NCBI RefSeq assembly: GCF_028898945.1
Contig: NZ_CP118607.1
Span: forward strand, 3,396,001-3,460,000
Source of the DNA: Pseudomonas sp. PSKL.D1
GTDB taxonomy: Bacteria > Pseudomonadota > Gammaproteobacteria > Pseudomonadales > Pseudomonadaceae
Direction: 5' to 3'
Length of the DNA stretch: 64,000 nt
A program made the translations under genes and the position numbers. How positions within the stretch are numbered: the stretch's first letter is position 1; the number at the start of each line of letters is the position of its first letter. Positions 56,304 to 62,613 of this stretch are shown here, piece by piece. Below the pieces are notes generated by a model. It worked only from the letters and a program-made list of their open reading frames with translations. It did not search any database and was not told the DNA's origin.

Positions 56304-59180
56304 TCAGGAGGCGGGGGCCGACGCCCCCTCCTCCAGTTGCCGCAACCAATAGGCCACATCCACTTCGTCCATCTGCTCGGCGCGCAAGAAGCGCTCGCCA
56401 TACGCGCGGTGCACGCCACTGCTGAGGAACAACCGCAGCAGCTGCCCGTCGACATGCTGGTCACGTGCCATGGCCACCAGGATCTTCACCGACTCGGACA
56501 GCGTCTTGGGCGGTTTGTATGGCCGGTCGGCGGCAGTCAGGGCCTCGAAAATGTCGGCAATCGCCATCACCCGTTCGGCAACGCTCAGGTCGTCCCTGTT
56601 CAACCGGCGTGGGTAGCCGGCGCCGTCCATGCGTTCGTGGTGGTTGCCGGCGATGTCGGGCACGCGCCGCAGTTGCCGGGGGAATGGCAGCGCCTTGAGC
56701 ATGATGATGGTCTGCACGATGTGTTCGTTGATCTTGAAACGCTCTTCATCGTTGAGCGTGCCACGGCGGATCGACAGGTTGTACAGCTCGCCCTGGTCGT
56801 TGGCATGGGCCGGCAGACGCATATCGAAGCCCCAGCTGTTGCGTGGGTCGCCCTTGGCCACCGGCGGCTTGCGTGCGCCCCAGGCGGTACGGTGTTCCTC
56901 GCGGTCGACGAGCAGCCGCTCTTCAACCGGCAAGGCTGGCTTCGCCAGGCCTGCATAACGGCCCTCCTCATCGCGAGACAGGCCCAGGCGGTTGTCGAAA
57001 TGCCGCCACCAGCGCCGCTGGCTGATGTGTTGCAAGCGCTCCACGTCTGCCTCCTGCATGAACTCGCCGCCGATGTTGGCCTTGGCCACGAAGGCAAAAT
57101 CGTCCTGCAACTGCGCGTGGCATTGCTCCAGCTGCACCTGCAACGTTTGGCGATCTTCACCCTTGGCCACGCCTTGCCAATAGGCAAGCTCCGCGTCGCG
57201 CCAGAGCACTTCGAACCGGGTGCGGATCTCGTGTATGCGGTTGTAAAGCGTCTCCAGCTTGGTGGCCTTGTCCACCACATGCTCGGGGCTGGTGATCTTG
57301 CCGCAATCGTGCAACCAGGCCGCAACATGAAACTCGTAGCGTTCGGCCTCGGTCATGGTGAAATCGGCATAGGGGCCGCTGTTGGCCTGCACGGCCTGGT
57401 CCAGCAGCATCTGGGCCAGCTGCGGCACCCGTTCGCAATGGCCGCCGGTATAAGGGCTTTTGGCGTCGATGGCATCGGCCAGCAGCTTGATCATGGCATC
57501 GAGCAGGCGTTGCTGCGCCTCCACCAGCTGACGCGTTTCGATGGCCACGGCGGCGGCACCGGACAACTCCTCCACAAAACGCCGGAACGGCTGGCCGACT
57601 TCATCACGCAACTGCTCGTTTTCCAGTTGCAGCACGAGCACGCCAAGCAACGCGTGGCTGCGGTCACGCAGCACCACGGGAAGACCACGCTCGTGCAGGC
57701 CCAGCGCCTGGGCAACCAGCGCCTGAGGGGCTTGTTGCTGGTCGGGCGGCAGGTTCAACCGCGCCGGGTAACCCTCGCCCCGGCAGGCAGCGGCCAGTTG
57801 CAGCACGTCGTGGTCGCTGTCGAACAGGTACACGGCGCCTGCCTGCAAGCCCGCAGCGTCGACCAGGTGCTTGAGCACGCCGTCGAGCATGCGCTCCAGC
57901 TGGGTCTCGCGGCTGAGGGTCAAGGTGATGGCCTGGAAGTTGCGGATGGTGCCGGTCATGCGGCTGAGCACGCGGCTGAGTTCGCGCACTTCGTGAACCC
58001 GCGACGTCACCCCCACTTCGCGGCTGAAATCAAACCCGGCCAAGGCACGCACCTGCTCGGCCAGCAGGCGCAGTGGCCGGCCGATGCGCTGGCCGATCAA
58101 CCCGCCCAGCAGCAGCAATACCGCCATCAGCCCCGCCGTCCACAACAGTTGATCGAACAGCACGTTGCGCGCGCTGGCCAGCAGTTCGTGCCCTGGTACG
58201 GCAATCAGAACCTGCAATTGCTGGCCGGCCAGGGTGGTCAGCGGCACGCGCATGCCATACCAAGTGCTGCCCTGCACCTGATAGGCCTGGGGTTCGCTGC
58301 CGTGGGGCGGGTTGGCATGCACCTGCTGCAGGCTGGCGATGCCCAGCTCTGGCAGTTGGGCCAGGCGTACACGCTGCCCCTCGTGCACGATGATACGTTG
58401 CAGGTCCGGGTAGGCGACGACGCTGCCCGCGTCGTCGAGCACGGCAATTTCGGTACCGGCGGTCATGCGCAGGTCACGGCTTTCCAGGGCCAGGTCATTC
58501 ACCGAAACGTCCATGCCGATGACCGCCCCGCCATCGACGCTGCGTTGGGCCATGGTCATGCCGATTTCGCCGGTGGTGAAGAACACGTAGGGGTGGGTGA
58601 GCGCCGTGGTGGGTCGGGCGAAGGCGTCGACGAACCAGGGGCGGCTGCGTGGGTCGTAGCGGTAGCCCGGTTTTGCCTCGGCGTGCAGGAGGGCCAGTTG
58701 CCGGTCATAAAAACGCCATTCGCCCTGCATTGTGCCATCGCTGGCCTGGGTGATGCTCTGCACCAGAAACTGCGTGCCTGCCGGGGCAACGAAGCGTTGC
58801 AGCAACTGGGGGTCGCGCAGGCGGCGCACCAACAGGAACTCGCCGTTGGGGTAGCCGATGTAGGCGGCACTGACCATCGGGTTGGCGTTCAGGCTTTCAA
58901 CCAGCTGTGGCAGGCGCTGCAGGCGTGCGTCGAGGCTGGCGTCTGCCGGGTTGAAGGCCAACAGGCGGATGCTGCTTTGCACCGGGTCGATCAAGCGCCG
59001 GGCACGCTCATCGATGGTTTTGCCAAATTGCTGCGCAGCATCGCCGGCGGCGGCCACCAGTGTCTGCTGAATGCCCCTGTAGCCTTGCCAGGCCAGCCCG
59101 GCCCCAAGCAGCAACATGCCCAGCATGATCGCCAGCGCAACCAGCCATTGCAGCGAAATGCCGCGTCCGTGCTCGCCCAT
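56304..59180 (-). CDS. HD-GYP phosphodiesterase with dCache-like sensor, HAMP and GAF domains
   Basis: From the ATG at 59180 (AGGGAG eight bases upstream) the protein has 958 residues. Order: membrane helix (about 10-30), periplasmic dCache-like sensor (about 35-340, with PRSRPWFVDAFARPT), second helix and HAMP (QRIGRPLRLLAEQVRAL), a GAF-like domain (about 430-560) and an HD-GYP domain. HD is in WLHDCGKI and the GYP signature in NHHERMDGAGYP is complete. About 230 residues separate the two, compared with about 60 in usual HD-GYP proteins, so a large insert lies between the metal-binding parts. It should hydrolyse cyclic di-GMP in response to an extracytoplasmic ligand. Confidence 0.9.
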   Translation of the reverse strand: MGEHGRGISLQWLVALAIMLGMLLLGAGLAWQGYRGIQQTLVAAAGDAAQQFGKTIDERARRLIDPVQSSIRLLAFNPADASLDARLQRLPQLVESLNANPMVSAAYIGYPNGEFLLVRRLRDPQLLQRFVAPAGTQFLVQSITQASDGTMQGEWRFYDRQLALLHAEAKPGYRYDPRSRPWFVDAFARPTTALTHPYVFFTTGEIGMTMAQRSVDGGAVIGMDVSVNDLALESRDLRMTAGTEIAVLDDAGSVVAYPDLQRIIVHEGQRVRLAQLPELGIASLQQVHANPPHGSEPQAYQVQGSTWYGMRVPLTTLAGQQLQVLIAVPGHELLASARNVLFDQLLWTAGLMAVLLLLGGLIGQRIGRPLRLLAEQVRALAGFDFSREVGVTSRVHEVRELSRVLSRMTGTIRNFQAITLTLSRETQLERMLDGVLKHLVDAAGLQAGAVYLFDSDHDVLQLAAACRGEGYPARLNLPPDQQQAPQALVAQALGLHERGLPVVLRDRSHALLGVLVLQLENEQLRDEVGQPFRRFVEELSGAAAVAIETRQLVEAQQRLLDAMIKLLADAIDAKSPYTGGHCERVPQLAQMLLDQAVQANSGPYADFTMTEAERYEFHVAAWLHDCGKITSPEHVVDKATKLETLYNRIHEIRTRFEVLWRDAELAYWQGVAKGEDRQTLQVQLEQCHAQLQDDFAFVAKANIGGEFMQEADVERLQHISQRRWWRHFDNRLGLSRDEEGRYAGLAKPALPVEERLLVDREEHRTAWGARKPPVAKGDPRNSWGFDMRLPAHANDQGELYNLSIRRGTLNDEERFKINEHIVQTIIMLKALPFPRQLRRVPDIAGNHHERMDGAGYPRRLNRDDLSVAERVMAIADIFEALTAADRPYKPPKTLSESVKILVAMARDQHVDGQLLRLFLSSGVHRAYGERFLRAEQMDEVDVAYWLRQLEEGASAPAS

Positions 59181-59303
59181 GGCAGGCACTCCCTAATTGG
59201 CGTTATCACTAGAGTGTAATCAGCCAGCCCGAACGCGCTGGAAAGTTGCAGGATACTGGCACAGTGCAATTAGCCGTACCAGCACGTTGTAGCGCGAAAA
59301 ACC

Positions 59304-59327
59304 TGTACAAACTTTTTGACTTGTACA
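59304..59327 (+). promoter_or_regulatory. PplR/LitR-type light-regulator box 1
   Basis: TGTACA (59304-59309), exactly 12 bases, TGTACA (59322-59327). This equals the direct repeat T(G/A)TACA-N12-TGTA(C/T)A bound by the B12-dependent LitR/CarH-family regulators PplR1-3 in P. putida. It overlaps a TTGACT element (59316-59321) that could be a -35. Confidence 0.82.
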
Positions 59328-59354
59328 AATTCATACCTAGGCTTCAGGTATACC

Positions 59355-59378
59355 TGTACAACATACTGAGCCTGTACA
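59355..59378 (+). promoter_or_regulatory. PplR/LitR-type light-regulator box 2
   Basis: TGTACA (59355-59360), exactly 12 bases, TGTACA (59373-59378). Same spacing and same flanks (CYTGTACAR) as box 1, 51 bp further on. It ends 19 bp before the first ATG of the operon. Confidence 0.82.
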
Positions 59379-59397
59379 GGATTTACCGGAGCCGCGC

Positions 59398-59820
59398 ATG
59401 TCTGCCTACCTGCAAACCTTCGCCGAACGCTTTGCCGCACTGGATGCAGGCAACCTTGCTAATTTGGGGCAGTTGTACAGCGATGACGTGACGTTCCGCG
59501 ATCCGCTGCACCACGTAGTCGGCCTGGAGCAACTGCAAGCGTACTTCGCCGAGCTGTTCGGCAACGCACAGGAAATCCGCTACGGGTTCGAAGGCGCGGA
59601 CGAGGTGCGGCCCGGCCAAGGCTACCTGCGCTGGACCCTGGAGTTTCGCCACCCACGCCTGGCCAGCGGGCGTTTGATCAGCCTGCAAGGCTGCAGCCAT
59701 GTTTGCTGGCACGACCGGGTGTATTTTCATCAGGATTATTTCGATGCCGGTGCCCTGCTCTATGAGCACGTACCTGTAATGGGTGGCGCAATCCGCTGGC
59801 TCAAGGGCCGGCTGGCATGA
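59398..59820 (+). CDS. SnoaL/NTF2-like protein, first gene of the light-type operon
   Basis: A 140-residue small alpha+beta barrel protein of the NTF2/SnoaL fold: MSAYLQTFAERFAALDAGNLANLGQLYSDDVTFRDPLH at the N-terminus and WHDRVYFHQDYFDAGALLYEHVPVMG at the C-terminus. It may be a small-molecule isomerase or a binding partner of the following enzymes. Its stop overlaps the SDR start (ATGA). Two PplR/LitR boxes lie just upstream. Confidence 0.88.
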   Translation: MSAYLQTFAERFAALDAGNLANLGQLYSDDVTFRDPLHHVVGLEQLQAYFAELFGNAQEIRYGFEGADEVRPGQGYLRWTLEFRHPRLASGRLISLQGCSHVCWHDRVYFHQDYFDAGALLYEHVPVMGGAIRWLKGRLA

Positions 59821-60569
59821 GCCGCTGCTGGCTGACCGGTGCCAGTAGCGGCATCGGCGCGGCACTCGCGCTGCGCCTGCTGGAACAAGGCCACCAGGTG
59901 GCATTGGGTGGCCGGCACGCCGCGCGCCTTGAACCGTTGGCCGAGCGCTTTCCGGGCCAGGTGCTGCTGGCCATCGGTGACCTCGACGCGCCGCAGCAAG
60001 TTGCCGCCATATGTAGCCAGATCGAGCAAGCCTGGGGCGCACTGGATTTGGTCATCCTCAACGCCGGCACCTGCGAATACCTGGAACCCGGCCGCTTCGA
60101 CCCCGTGTTGGTTGAGCGCGTGGTCCGCACCAACCTGTTCGCCGTCAGCCATTGCATTCAGCAGGCTCTGCCACTGCTGCACCGCGGCCAACGTCCGCAC
60201 CTGGTGGTGATGGGCAGTTCGGTCAGCTGGCTGGCATTGCAACGCGCCGGGGCCTACGGTGCCTCCAAAGCCGCTGTACGCTACCTGGTCGAATCCCTGC
60301 GCATCGACCTGGCTGCCGAGGGCATCGACACCACGCTGGTCAGCCCCGGCTTCGTCGACACCCCCCTGACCCGGCGTAACGACTTCCCCATGCCACAGTT
60401 GTGGAGCGCCGAACGTGCTGCCGGGCACATTATCAATCGCCTGCCCCAGCGCCCGCTGGAAATCGCTTTCCCCGGCCTGTTCACCTGGGTGCTGCGCCTG
60501 CTTGGCGCCCTGCCTGCCGGTTTGCGGATGCGCCTGGGCCAGCGCCTGGCGCGCAAGGCAGAGGGCTGA
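59817..60569 (+). CDS. SDR-family oxidoreductase of the light-type operon
   Basis: The 250-residue protein has a complete SDR active site: TGASSGIG at the N-terminus, NAGT in place of NNAG, the Ser in GSSVSW and YGASK. SPGFVDTPLT matches the nucleotide-side loop. The C-terminal third is hydrophobic and Arg-rich (PGLFTWVLRLLGALPAGLR), suggesting contact with the membrane. It is expected to act on a lipid-like substrate together with the flavin protein and the CFA-type enzyme. It overlaps the preceding gene and is 2 bp from the next. Confidence 0.88.
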   Translation: MSRCWLTGASSGIGAALALRLLEQGHQVALGGRHAARLEPLAERFPGQVLLAIGDLDAPQQVAAICSQIEQAWGALDLVILNAGTCEYLEPGRFDPVLVERVVRTNLFAVSHCIQQALPLLHRGQRPHLVVMGSSVSWLALQRAGAYGASKAAVRYLVESLRIDLAAEGIDTTLVSPGFVDTPLTRRNDFPMPQLWSAERAAGHIINRLPQRPLEIAFPGLFTWVLRLLGALPAGLRMRLGQRLARKAEG

Positions 60570-60571
60570 CC

Positions 60572-61819
60572 ATGCGCATCGCCATCATTGGCAGCGGTAT
60601 CGCCGGGCTGACCTGCGCCCACCTGCTGTGCCGCCAGCATGAGATCACCGTGTTCGAGGCAGCCAGCTGGGTCGGCGGGCATACTCACACCGTTGACGTG
60701 CAATGGCGCGGTCAAGCGTACGCGGTGGACACGGGTTTCATCGTATTCAACGACTGGACCTACCCACACTTCATCCGCTTGCTCACGCACCTGAAGGTGC
60801 CCTCACGCCCCACCGAAATGAGCTTCTCGGTGCACGACCCGCGCACGGGCTTCGAGTACAACGGCCATGACCTGAACACCCTGTTCGCCCAACGCCGCAA
60901 CCTGCTGTCGCCGGGGTTCTGGGGCATGCTGCGCGACATTCTGCGTTTTAACCGCCAGGCCATCGCCGACCTCGACGCCCAACGCATCGATGCCGGCACC
61001 ACGCTGGGCAGCTACCTGCACGAACACGGCTACGGCAACCGCTTCATCGAGCACTACATCGTGCCCATGGGCTCGGCGATCTGGTCGATGCCGTGCGCTG
61101 AAATGCTCGCCTTCCCCCTGCAGTTTTTCGTGCGCTTTTGCCGCAACCATGGGCTGTTGTCGGTCAGCAACCGGCCGCAATGGCGGGTGATCGAAGGCGG
61201 TTCGCGCAGCTACCTTGCGCCGCTGTGCCGGCCCTTTGCCGAGCGCATTCGCCTCAACTGCCCGGTCAGCCGGGTGGCCCGGGACGAGGCCGGCGTGACG
61301 CTGCACAGCCCGGCCGGGCCGGAGCGTTTCGACAAGGTGGTGTTCGCTTGCCACAGCGACCAGGCCCTGGCGCTGCTCGAAGCGCCCAGCACAGACGAAC
61401 GTGCAGTGTTGGCGGCCATTACCTACGCCAGCAATGACGTGGTGCTGCACACCGACACCCGGCTGCTGCCCCGCCGTCGTCGGGCCTGGGCCAGCTGGAA
61501 CTACCGGCTGGGCGGCCCCGGGCATGCCCCCGCAGCGCTCACCTATGACATGAACATCCTGCAAGGTTTGCAGGCACCGGTCACGTTCTGCGTAAGCCTG
61601 AACCAGACAGCGCTGGTGGACCCTGCGCAAATCCTCGCCCGTTTCGACTACGCACACCCGCAGTACAGCCTGGCCGCCGTGGCCGCCCAGGCACGCCAGG
61701 ACGAGCTGCAAGGCCAGCAGCACAGCTATTACTGCGGCGCCTACTGGGCCAACGGTTTCCACGAGGACGGCGTGCTAAGCGCACTGAACGTGGCCGAACA
61801 TTTCGGAGAACGCCTGTGA
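60572..61819 (+). CDS. FAD-dependent amine oxidase-like protein of the light-type operon
   Basis: From the ATG at 60572 the protein has 415 residues. IAIIGSGIAGLTCAHLL is the FAD loop and EAASWVGGHTHTVDVQWRG the second glycine stretch. VIEGGSRSYLAPLCRPFAERI and NVLHTD-like blocks (SNDVVLHTDTRLLPRRRRAW) are characteristic of the conserved family found with CFA synthase and DUF1365 genes. It may desaturate or oxidise a fatty acyl chain, as needed to form furan fatty acids; this is an inference from context. It overlaps the DUF1365 gene. Confidence 0.88.
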   Translation: MRIAIIGSGIAGLTCAHLLCRQHEITVFEAASWVGGHTHTVDVQWRGQAYAVDTGFIVFNDWTYPHFIRLLTHLKVPSRPTEMSFSVHDPRTGFEYNGHDLNTLFAQRRNLLSPGFWGMLRDILRFNRQAIADLDAQRIDAGTTLGSYLHEHGYGNRFIEHYIVPMGSAIWSMPCAEMLAFPLQFFVRFCRNHGLLSVSNRPQWRVIEGGSRSYLAPLCRPFAERIRLNCPVSRVARDEAGVTLHSPAGPERFDKVVFACHSDQALALLEAPSTDERAVLAAITYASNDVVLHTDTRLLPRRRRAWASWNYRLGGPGHAPAALTYDMNILQGLQAPVTFCVSLNQTALVDPAQILARFDYAHPQYSLAAVAAQARQDELQGQQHSYYCGAYWANGFHEDGVLSALNVAEHFGERL

Positions 61820-62613
61820 CCAGCAGCCTGTGCCATGGCTGGGTCAGCCATCGACGCTCCAGCCCCAGGCCCCATGCGTTCCGCTACCGCATCGGCATGT
61901 TCTACCTGGACCTGGCTGAAGACCCTGCCCTGCTGCTCGGCCGCAAGCGGTTTGCCCCGCTGTGCTGGCGCGAAACCGACTACCTGCCCTCGCTCACCCG
62001 TACAGGCACACCGCTGGCCGACGCTGCCCGCCAGCTGGTCGGCCAGGCCACCGGGCAACCGCCCCGGGGAGCCGTACATCTGCTCACCCAGCCCCGTTGC
62101 TGGGGGTTGTCGTTCAACCCGGTGAGCGTTTACTTCTGCCATGACCTCGACGGGGTGCTGGCGGCCCTGCTGCTGGAAGTGCGCAACACACCATGGCGGG
62201 AGCGCTTCCATTACGTATTGCCCGTGCACGGCAACCTGGCCCAGCCGTTCGCCATGGCCAAGGCGTTTCATGTTTCGCCCTTTCTGCCGCTGGACATGGA
62301 TTACCGCTTGCGCTTCGCCCTTGATGCCCGGCACGTTCGTGTACACATGGAAAACTGGCACGACGGGCAGAAGGTGTTCGCAGCCGACCTGGCCCTGCAA
62401 CGCCAGCCCCTGGATCGCGCTGCCGTGCGCAGGCACATCTTCACCTTCCCCTGGATGAGCCTGCGCACGGTCTCGGCCATTTACTGGCAAGCCCTGCGCC
62501 TGCTGTTCAAACGCACCCCTGTTCACGATCACGCAGCCAGCCGGGGCCACCTCGCGCTGGGCCACCCCGTTTGCGAGGAACCCGACCATGCCCAATCCCA
62601 CCCTGAGCGTTAG
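61816..62613 (+). CDS. DUF1365 protein, GTG start
   Basis: The 265-residue protein starts at a GTG that overlaps the preceding stop (GTGA). It contains CHGWVSHRRSSPRPHAFRYRI, RCWGLSFNPVSVYFCHD and MDYRLRFALDARHVRVHMENW, all typical of DUF1365, which has no established activity and nearly always sits between the flavin protein and a CFA-type methyltransferase. It overlaps the CFA-type gene by 26 bases. Confidence 0.9.
   Translation: MTSSLCHGWVSHRRSSPRPHAFRYRIGMFYLDLAEDPALLLGRKRFAPLCWRETDYLPSLTRTGTPLADAARQLVGQATGQPPRGAVHLLTQPRCWGLSFNPVSVYFCHDLDGVLAALLLEVRNTPWRERFHYVLPVHGNLAQPFAMAKAFHVSPFLPLDMDYRLRFALDARHVRVHMENWHDGQKVFAADLALQRQPLDRAAVRRHIFTFPWMSLRTVSAIYWQALRLLFKRTPVHDHAASRGHLALGHPVCEEPDHAQSHPER

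What the first reader, a model, noticed from the sequence alone, without database searches (positions are those of the whole stretch)
59300..59400. Two tandem PplR/LitR light-regulator boxes drive the lipid-modification operon
Four copies of TGTACA occur in 75 bp, arranged as two pairs with exactly 12 bases between members (59304/59322 and 59355/59373). This is the direct repeat reported for the B12-dependent PplR1-3 regulators of P. putida, and the same work listed the furan fatty acid gene ufaM among the light-induced genes. Here it stands before a six-gene operon ending in a CFA/UfaM-like enzyme, so the whole operon, including the unassigned SnoaL-like, flavin and DUF1365 proteins, is probably switched on by light. 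A double box is unusual and may give stronger or stepwise repression.
Basis: partly seen in the sequence, partly recalled or inferred. Interest (0 to 1): 0.82.

Follow-up and report, generated by a model that had tools for sequence, protein, structure and literature searches.

The report
Double light-repressor operator before furan-lipid genes

Summary
In detail: two perfect TGTACA-N12-TGTACA boxes at 59304-59327 and 59355-59378, the only perfect ones in the 5.88 Mb genome. It is not unusual. The same two-site promoter was footprinted in P. mendocina (P6650, PMC9758184): site 1 over the -35 TTGACT, site 2 between start and ATG, PmlR2 repressor, released by a blue-light LOV protein. Here TTGACT is 59316-59321, a TAGGCT -10 follows after the same 16 bp, and a start 48 bp before the ATG would be 59350. 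A perfect double box occurs in 136 of 398 Pseudomonas genomes (reversed control 0); 77 of 80 named loci have one at the operon head. The genome has two class II LitR genes and one short LOV with its cysteine. B12 dependence is not supported. The flavin and DUF1365 proteins belong to the protein types of UfaD and UfaO. Possibly new: in many relatives the lipid genes follow rudS-pplR1-phrB under a TATGAT promoter; in this lineage they form their own operon with a TAGGCT-type -10 (C at -8 in 26 of 26 against 4 of 28), hinting at stress-sigma control, and this genome lacks the LitR-LOV pair that often sits beside it.

The parts
59304..59327 (+). Operator site 1, TGTACA-N12-TGTACA, overlapping the predicted -35
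   Evidence: same place as Site 1 of P. mendocina P6650
59316..59321 (+). Predicted -35, TTGACT, inside site 1
   Evidence: sequence; identical hexamer in P6650
59338..59343 (+). Predicted -10, TAGGCT, 16 bp after the -35 (P6650 has TATGAT there)
   Evidence: sequence; TAGGCT type common in the split lineage. A sigma-70 consensus scan found no promoter
59350..59350 (+). Predicted transcription start, 48 bp before the ATG by analogy with P6650 (inference)
   Evidence: P6650 start mapped by 5'-RACE and CAGE; not measured here
59355..59378 (+). Operator site 2, TGTACA-N12-TGTACA, between predicted start and ATG
   Evidence: same place as Site 2 of P6650
59398..59820 (+). SnoaL-like protein, first gene, role unknown
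   Evidence: Pfam SnoaL_2
59817..60569 (+). Short-chain dehydrogenase/reductase
   Evidence: Pfam adh_short
60572..61819 (+). FAD amine-oxidase-like protein, candidate UfaD desaturase
   Evidence: Pfam Amino_oxidase and NAD_binding_8; UfaD is described as an NAD/FAD-binding desaturase
61816..62613 (+). DUF1365 protein, candidate UfaO oxygenase
   Evidence: Pfam DUF1365 E 4e-72; UfaO carries DUF1365; only DUF1365 match in the genome
62588..63847 (+). CMAS-family fatty-acyl methyltransferase, candidate UfaM, not the housekeeping CfaB
   Evidence: Pfam CMAS; under the cut-off of each curated CFA synthase model listed; a CfaB at 737 bits (cut-off 650) is elsewhere in the genome
63850..64000 (+). 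DUF2878 protein, sixth gene, runs out of the window (L016 11851-12339)
   Evidence: Pfam DUF2878 E 9e-38; frame

Best explanation
59304-59378 is the double operator of a class II LitR repressor (PplR1 and/or PplR3 in this genome) over the promoter of a six-gene operon that most likely makes methylated furan fatty acids. In the dark the repressor sits on site 1 (over the -35) and site 2 (just after the start) and keeps RNA polymerase out. Blue light makes a cysteine-flavin adduct in a short LOV protein, which binds the repressor and takes it off the DNA. The lipid enzymes then modify membrane phospholipids, presumably as protection against singlet oxygen. Shown here: sites, geometry, conservation, presence of LitR and LOV genes, gene content. 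Inferred: binding, light response, transcription start, product.
For: Exact boxes with the P6650 layout. Perfect double box in 136 of 398 genus genomes, reversed control 0 of 398. By a looser rule, a double box at the operon head in 52 of 54 hand-picked wide-context loci and in 30 of 30 closest SnoaL loci, the window's own among them (the two sets share 11 genomes), and in 77 of 80 named loci, the best 80 of 488 confirmed. The rule fires on 5 of 5214 random pieces without a consensus box and 33 of 5360 reversed pieces of the same loci. Two LitR genes with MerR domains. A short LOV with the DCRFLQ cysteine, matched end to end by solved 'sensory box' LOV chains such as 5luv and 3sw1 (that these are Pseudomonas short LOVs is recalled). 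In P. mendocina PmlR2 footprints both sites, blocks transcription in vitro and is released by illuminated LOV; ufaM rises 25-33-fold in light.
Against: No binding or light data exist here for this species. TAGGCT is only 3 of 6 to the sigma-70 -10 and the promoter scan found nothing. The LitR-LOV pair that flanks this promoter in many relatives is missing, so the operator must be read by regulators encoded elsewhere. One search also lists three weaker MerR-like proteins that I did not examine. In 30 of the loci behind the first gene after a perfect double box is rudS in 25, a photolyase-like gene in 1 and snoaL in 4, so that genus count mostly concerns the longer relative of this operon.
Confidence: 0.86

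Rival explanations
1. Same operator, but the promoter has two gates: light removes PplR, and the TAGGCT-type -10 needs the stationary-phase/stress sigma factor RpoS (or RpoH) for strong output.
For: Among promoters with TAnnnT at the -10 place, split operons have C at -8 in 26 of 26, the longer operons in 4 of 28. The RpoS -10 motif is given as CTATACT or KCTAYRCTTAA (PMC11784136, PMC5650638, passages); the window's CCTAGGCTTCA fits 8 of 11 by my count. 18 of 41 split promoters keep TTGACT against 26 of 30 intact. From memory only: the TOL Pm promoter has a like -10 read by stress sigma factors; searches did not show this.
Against: 40 of the 42 split rows in the tree lie on one side of one branch, so the counts are not independent. 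15 of 41 split promoters lack TAnnnT at that place and were left out. TTGACT kept in the window argues for sigma-70. A weak sigma-70 -10 would look the same.
Confidence: 0.3
2. The operator is bound, but by another MerR-type protein for a non-light signal, and light is not the natural input here.
For: The local LitR-LOV pair is absent. PP_2736-PP_2738 of P. putida KT2440, which I take from memory to be part of this operon, rose with methanol (PMC10308882, passages). LitR paralogues share a similar DNA-binding domain.
Against: Two class II LitR genes and a LOV with its cysteine are present, and both boxes fit the published consensus.
Confidence: 0.08
3. Four TGTACA by chance or codon usage.
For: TGTACA is threefold over-represented in the window.
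Against: Conservation of sites, spacing and position across the genus against low controls.
Confidence: 0.01

Closest known systems
P6650 promoter of P. mendocina NBRC 14162 with PmlR2 and PmSB-LOV (PMC9758184, passages and two sections read)
   Same: Two TGTACA-N12-TGTACA sites; site 1 over the -35 TTGACT; 16-bp spacer; site 2 between start and ATG; 48 bp from start to ATG if the start is as predicted; SDR, FAD protein and ufaM downstream
   Different: -10 is TATGAT there and TAGGCT here; P6650 heads a nine-gene unit with pmlR1 and phrB (that its first gene is rudS is my inference from relatives), here the lipid genes stand alone
PplR1-3 regulon of P. putida KT2440 (Sumi 2020, not held; seen only as cited in PMC9758184)
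   Same: Consensus T(G/A)TACA-N12-TGTA(C/T)A; ufaM, phrB, pplR1 among light-induced genes
   Different: KT2440 has three LitR and two short LOV proteins; here the searches found two and one
Furan fatty acid genes of R. sphaeroides and R. palustris (PMC7380195, passages)
   Same: FAD protein (UfaD), DUF1365 (UfaO) and methyltransferase (UfaM) have consecutive locus numbers in R. palustris, as the three types are consecutive here
   Different: There tied to singlet oxygen and ChrR; in R. sphaeroides ufaM (RSP2144) lies outside the operon. Orthology of the methyltransferase was not tested
CarH/LitR class I B12 photoreceptors
   Same: MerR-type DNA-binding domain
   Different: No PF02310 B12-binding domain listed for PplR1 or PplR3; B12-binding_2 borderline in PplR1, weak in PplR3

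Membership tests
Class II LitR (PplR/PmlR) operator of Pseudomonas | TGTACA-N12-TGTACA site(s) | tested here: met
   two exact sites, the only perfect ones in the genome
Class II LitR (PplR/PmlR) operator of Pseudomonas | Site 1 overlaps a TTGACT -35 | tested here: met
   TTGACT 59316-59321 inside site 1
Class II LitR (PplR/PmlR) operator of Pseudomonas | Site 2 between transcription start and ATG | tested here: inconclusive
   position fits if the start is at 59350; start not mapped
Class II LitR (PplR/PmlR) operator of Pseudomonas | LitR and short LOV genes in the genome | tested here: met
   PplR1- and PplR3-like genes; LOV with cysteine, the only one of 36 PAS_9 matches in a frame under 341 aa; the others were not examined
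Class II LitR (PplR/PmlR) operator of Pseudomonas | Conserved at the operon head in relatives | tested here: met
   77 of 80 named loci; 52 of 54 and 30 of 30 in overlapping unnamed sets
Class II LitR (PplR/PmlR) operator of Pseudomonas | Protein binding and light induction | not testable with these tools
   needs footprint and RT-qPCR
P6650-type promoter | TATGAT -10 | tested here: not met
   TAGGCT at that place
Furan fatty acid pathway | UfaD, UfaO and UfaM protein types together | tested here: met
   family level only: Amino_oxidase/FAD, DUF1365, CMAS
Furan fatty acid pathway | Orthology with characterised enzymes, or product | not tested
   reference sequences were not fetched; needs lipid analysis
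B12-dependent CarH/LitR | B12-binding domain PF02310 in the regulators | tested here: not met
   no PF02310 listed at E up to 1 for either protein; B12-binding_2 borderline in PplR1 (over cut-off, under it)
RpoS-dependent promoter | CTATACT-like -10 (KCTAYRCTTAA) | tested here: inconclusive
   8 of 11 by hand; C at -8 conserved; no functional test

The most novel reading that the evidence does not exclude
In one Pseudomonas lineage the furan-lipid genes stand apart from the light-repair operon (rudS-pplR1-phrB) and run under their own double operator, whose core promoter is of a TAGGCT instead of a TATGAT type. This would make them answer to light AND a stress sigma factor. In the window's genome the operon also sits without a neighbouring repressor-photoreceptor pair, so a perfect operator is read in trans, while the rudS operator of the same genome has decayed (20 of 24 letters, by hand).
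Probability: 0.3. Interest if true: 0.45.

Novelty: new member of a known kind. Interest (0 to 1): 0.3.

Why it matters
It shows that the double box is usual rather than odd, gives a genus-wide set of natural variants of a short-LOV/MerR switch, and puts the three furan fatty acid protein types under a predicted light switch in a non-phototroph. The TATGAT to TAGGCT difference and the missing local sensor are directly testable cases of rewiring around a kept operator.

Tried and rejected
Chance or codon usage: rejected. B12 as the direct signal: not supported. 'Double box unusual': rejected. Third LitR gene in this genome: the 322-aa frame at 4191289 found weakly by PF02607 reads as a different protein by eye, and a PplR3 query gives PplR1 and three weak MerR-like hits that I did not examine. 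RNA hairpin over site 2: its 8-bp stem follows from the palindromic hexamers and folds no better than shuffles (z -0.10). Plasmid copies of the operon: no match in 'near' mode. The Pm promoter -10 in print: searches gave nothing, so it stays a recollection. Whether the methyltransferase is orthologous to R. sphaeroides UfaM or to the dispensable RSP1089: not resolved. Sumi 2020, the primary PplR paper, is not held. Searches that could have shown print on this operon's separate state or its -10; the listings showed no such report, but I read only passages of PMC9758184 (plus two sections), PMC7380195, PMC11417400, PMC11784136, PMC5650638 and PMC10308882; in PMC5481539 the words sought gave no passage.

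What the counts leave out. One search found SnoaL relatives in 281 of 398 genomes; I used the 30 closest (window's own included) and 54 loci picked by hand from its capped list, 14 of them for kinship to the window. Before the -10 counts I dropped 11 duplicate genomes, and there 15 of 41 split and 2 of 30 intact promoters had no TAnnnT and were not counted. Three of 80 loci (L187, L203, L205) failed the length or presence filter of the tree. No double box under the rule: L152, L155, L187, L188, L218; L187 and L188 show degenerate boxes by eye. The script anchored L228 and L236 differently and labelled them none. Of the 25 loci with a LitR-LOV pair, one (L162) has it 2.6 kb away.

Full report
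What is there. Searches confirm four TGTACA at 59304, 59322, 59355 and 59373, in two exact TGTACA-N12-TGTACA boxes 51 bp apart. One search finds no other perfect box in the 5.88 Mb genome; at up to one mismatch there are 18 forward matches against 6 for the reversed-pattern control. The hexamer itself is over-represented in the window (18 against 5.9 expected), so pairing and position carry the argument.

What it matches. PMC9758184 (passages and two named sections) maps the light-inducible promoter P6650 of P. mendocina: TTGACT-N16-TATGAT, start 48 bp before the ATG, Site 1 over the -35, Site 2 between start and ATG, both TGTACA-N12-TGTACA, footprint +32 to -45 on the sense strand. In the window TTGACT is 59316-59321 inside site 1, TAGGCT follows after 16 bp at 59338-59343, the ATG is 59398, and a start 48 bp upstream would be 59350, which puts site 2 (59355-59378) between start and ATG. 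The paper shows repression in vitro, release by illuminated LOV, and 25-33-fold light induction of ufaM. It also states that B12 is not needed for PplR-mediated induction in P. putida; PMC11417400 (passages) describes these regulators as adenosyl-B12-dependent.

Is it unusual. No. The perfect double box, with a 12-42 bp gap, occurs in 136 of 398 genus genomes (window's included), the reversed pattern in 0 of 398. In 30 of those loci the first gene after it is rudS in 25, a photolyase-like gene in 1 and snoaL in 4. With a looser rule, double boxes stand at the operon head in 52 of 54 hand-picked wide-context loci and 30 of 30 closest SnoaL loci (window's own among the 30, 11 genomes shared), and in 77 of 80 named loci, the best 80 of 488 confirmed. 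The rule fires on 5 of 5214 random and 33 of 5360 reversed pieces of the same loci.

Two arrangements. In 32 of the 54 wide-context loci the lipid genes follow phrB in one unit, mostly rudS-pplR1-phrB-snoaL-SDR-FAD-DUF1365-CMAS-DUF2878, with the double box before the first gene in 30 of 32 and no box of 11 or 12 matching letters just before snoaL. In 22 of 54, as in the window, snoaL is the first gene with its own double box. Among the named loci 37 of 80 are of the long and 43 of the separate kind; both samples were chosen by kinship or by hand, so these are not frequencies in the genus. RudS is a tRNA 4-thiouridine desulfidase reported in light-responsive operons. In a UfaD tree of 77 of 80 named loci plus the window (midpoint root, SH-aLRT only), 40 of 42 split rows form one side of a starred branch (99) and two (L211, L238) fall among the long ones. 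Those two, and L203, which the tree filter left out, also carry double boxes. So the operator goes with the head of the operon, whichever gene that is.

Core promoter. Where TAnnnT stands at the -10 place, split promoters have C at -8 in 26 of 26 and intact ones in 4 of 28; the third base is G in 23 of 26 against 0 of 28 (the window is one of the 26). Shared descent means the Fisher values there are not probabilities. C at that place is a feature of the RpoS motif CTATACT. This is a hint, not a test. In the 30 closest loci a (T/C)ATA(C/T)C element abuts site 2 in 30 of 30, TATACC in 23 of 30; it is unexplained.

Regulators. The genome has a PplR1-like gene (L101 6015-6914) next to rudS and phrB, and a PplR3-like gene (L103 4644-5582) near a short LOV with the DCRFLQ cysteine. 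Of 36 PAS_9 matches this is the only one in a frame under 341 aa; the others were not examined. Both regulators have MerR domains; PF02310 is not listed for either; B12-binding_2 is borderline in PplR1 (over the cut-off, under it). In 25 of 43 split named loci (24 of them adjacent, L162 2.6 kb away) and 11 of 22 split context loci a divergent LitR gene and a short LOV lie upstream of the double box. The window's genome belongs to those without. An HD-domain gene stands there instead, and its homologue is found at none of the 134 relatives' loci within the stretches held. If the operator works, it is read in trans. The genome's rudS promoter has a decayed pair, TATACA-N12-TGCATA and TGTACG-N12-TGTACA, 50 bp apart.

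Genes. Pfam: SnoaL_2, adh_short, Amino_oxidase/FAD, DUF1365, CMAS, DUF2878. PMC7380195 (passages) shows that UfaM (methylase), UfaD (FAD desaturase) and UfaO (DUF1365, oxygenase) suffice for the furan fatty acid 9M5-FuFA, and cites earlier work that singlet oxygen kills cells unable to make it. In R. sphaeroides ufaM lies outside the operon and RSP1089 inside it is dispensable, so the name UfaM for the window's methyltransferase is likely but not proven. It is not the housekeeping enzyme: a CfaB over its cut-off lies elsewhere.

Verdict. An orthologous case of a published light-repressor operator, on a variant core promoter. Binding, light response and product are inferred.

Noticed in passing
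59345-59356: 12-bp palindrome CAGGTATACCTG overlapping the start of site 2; its TATACC part is kept as (T/C)ATA(C/T)C in 30 of 30 closest loci. It may be a second -10 or a contact site.
   Followed up: partly
L101 3887-3910: Single box TATACA-N12-TGTACA 50 bp before a flavin oxidoreductase gene upstream of rudS; boxes at a like place are listed in 6 of 32 intact relatives.
   Followed up: partly
L101 4966-5039: Degenerate double box before rudS in the window's own genome, weaker than the one in the window.
   Followed up: partly
56304-59189 (-): Divergent neighbour carries an HD_5 domain (GAF and HAMP below their cut-offs), a candidate HD-GYP sensor; not found beside this operon in 134 relatives' loci.
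   Followed up: partly
59474-59479: A fifth TGTACA lies inside the snoaL gene, without a second TGTACA at 12 bases.
   Followed up: no
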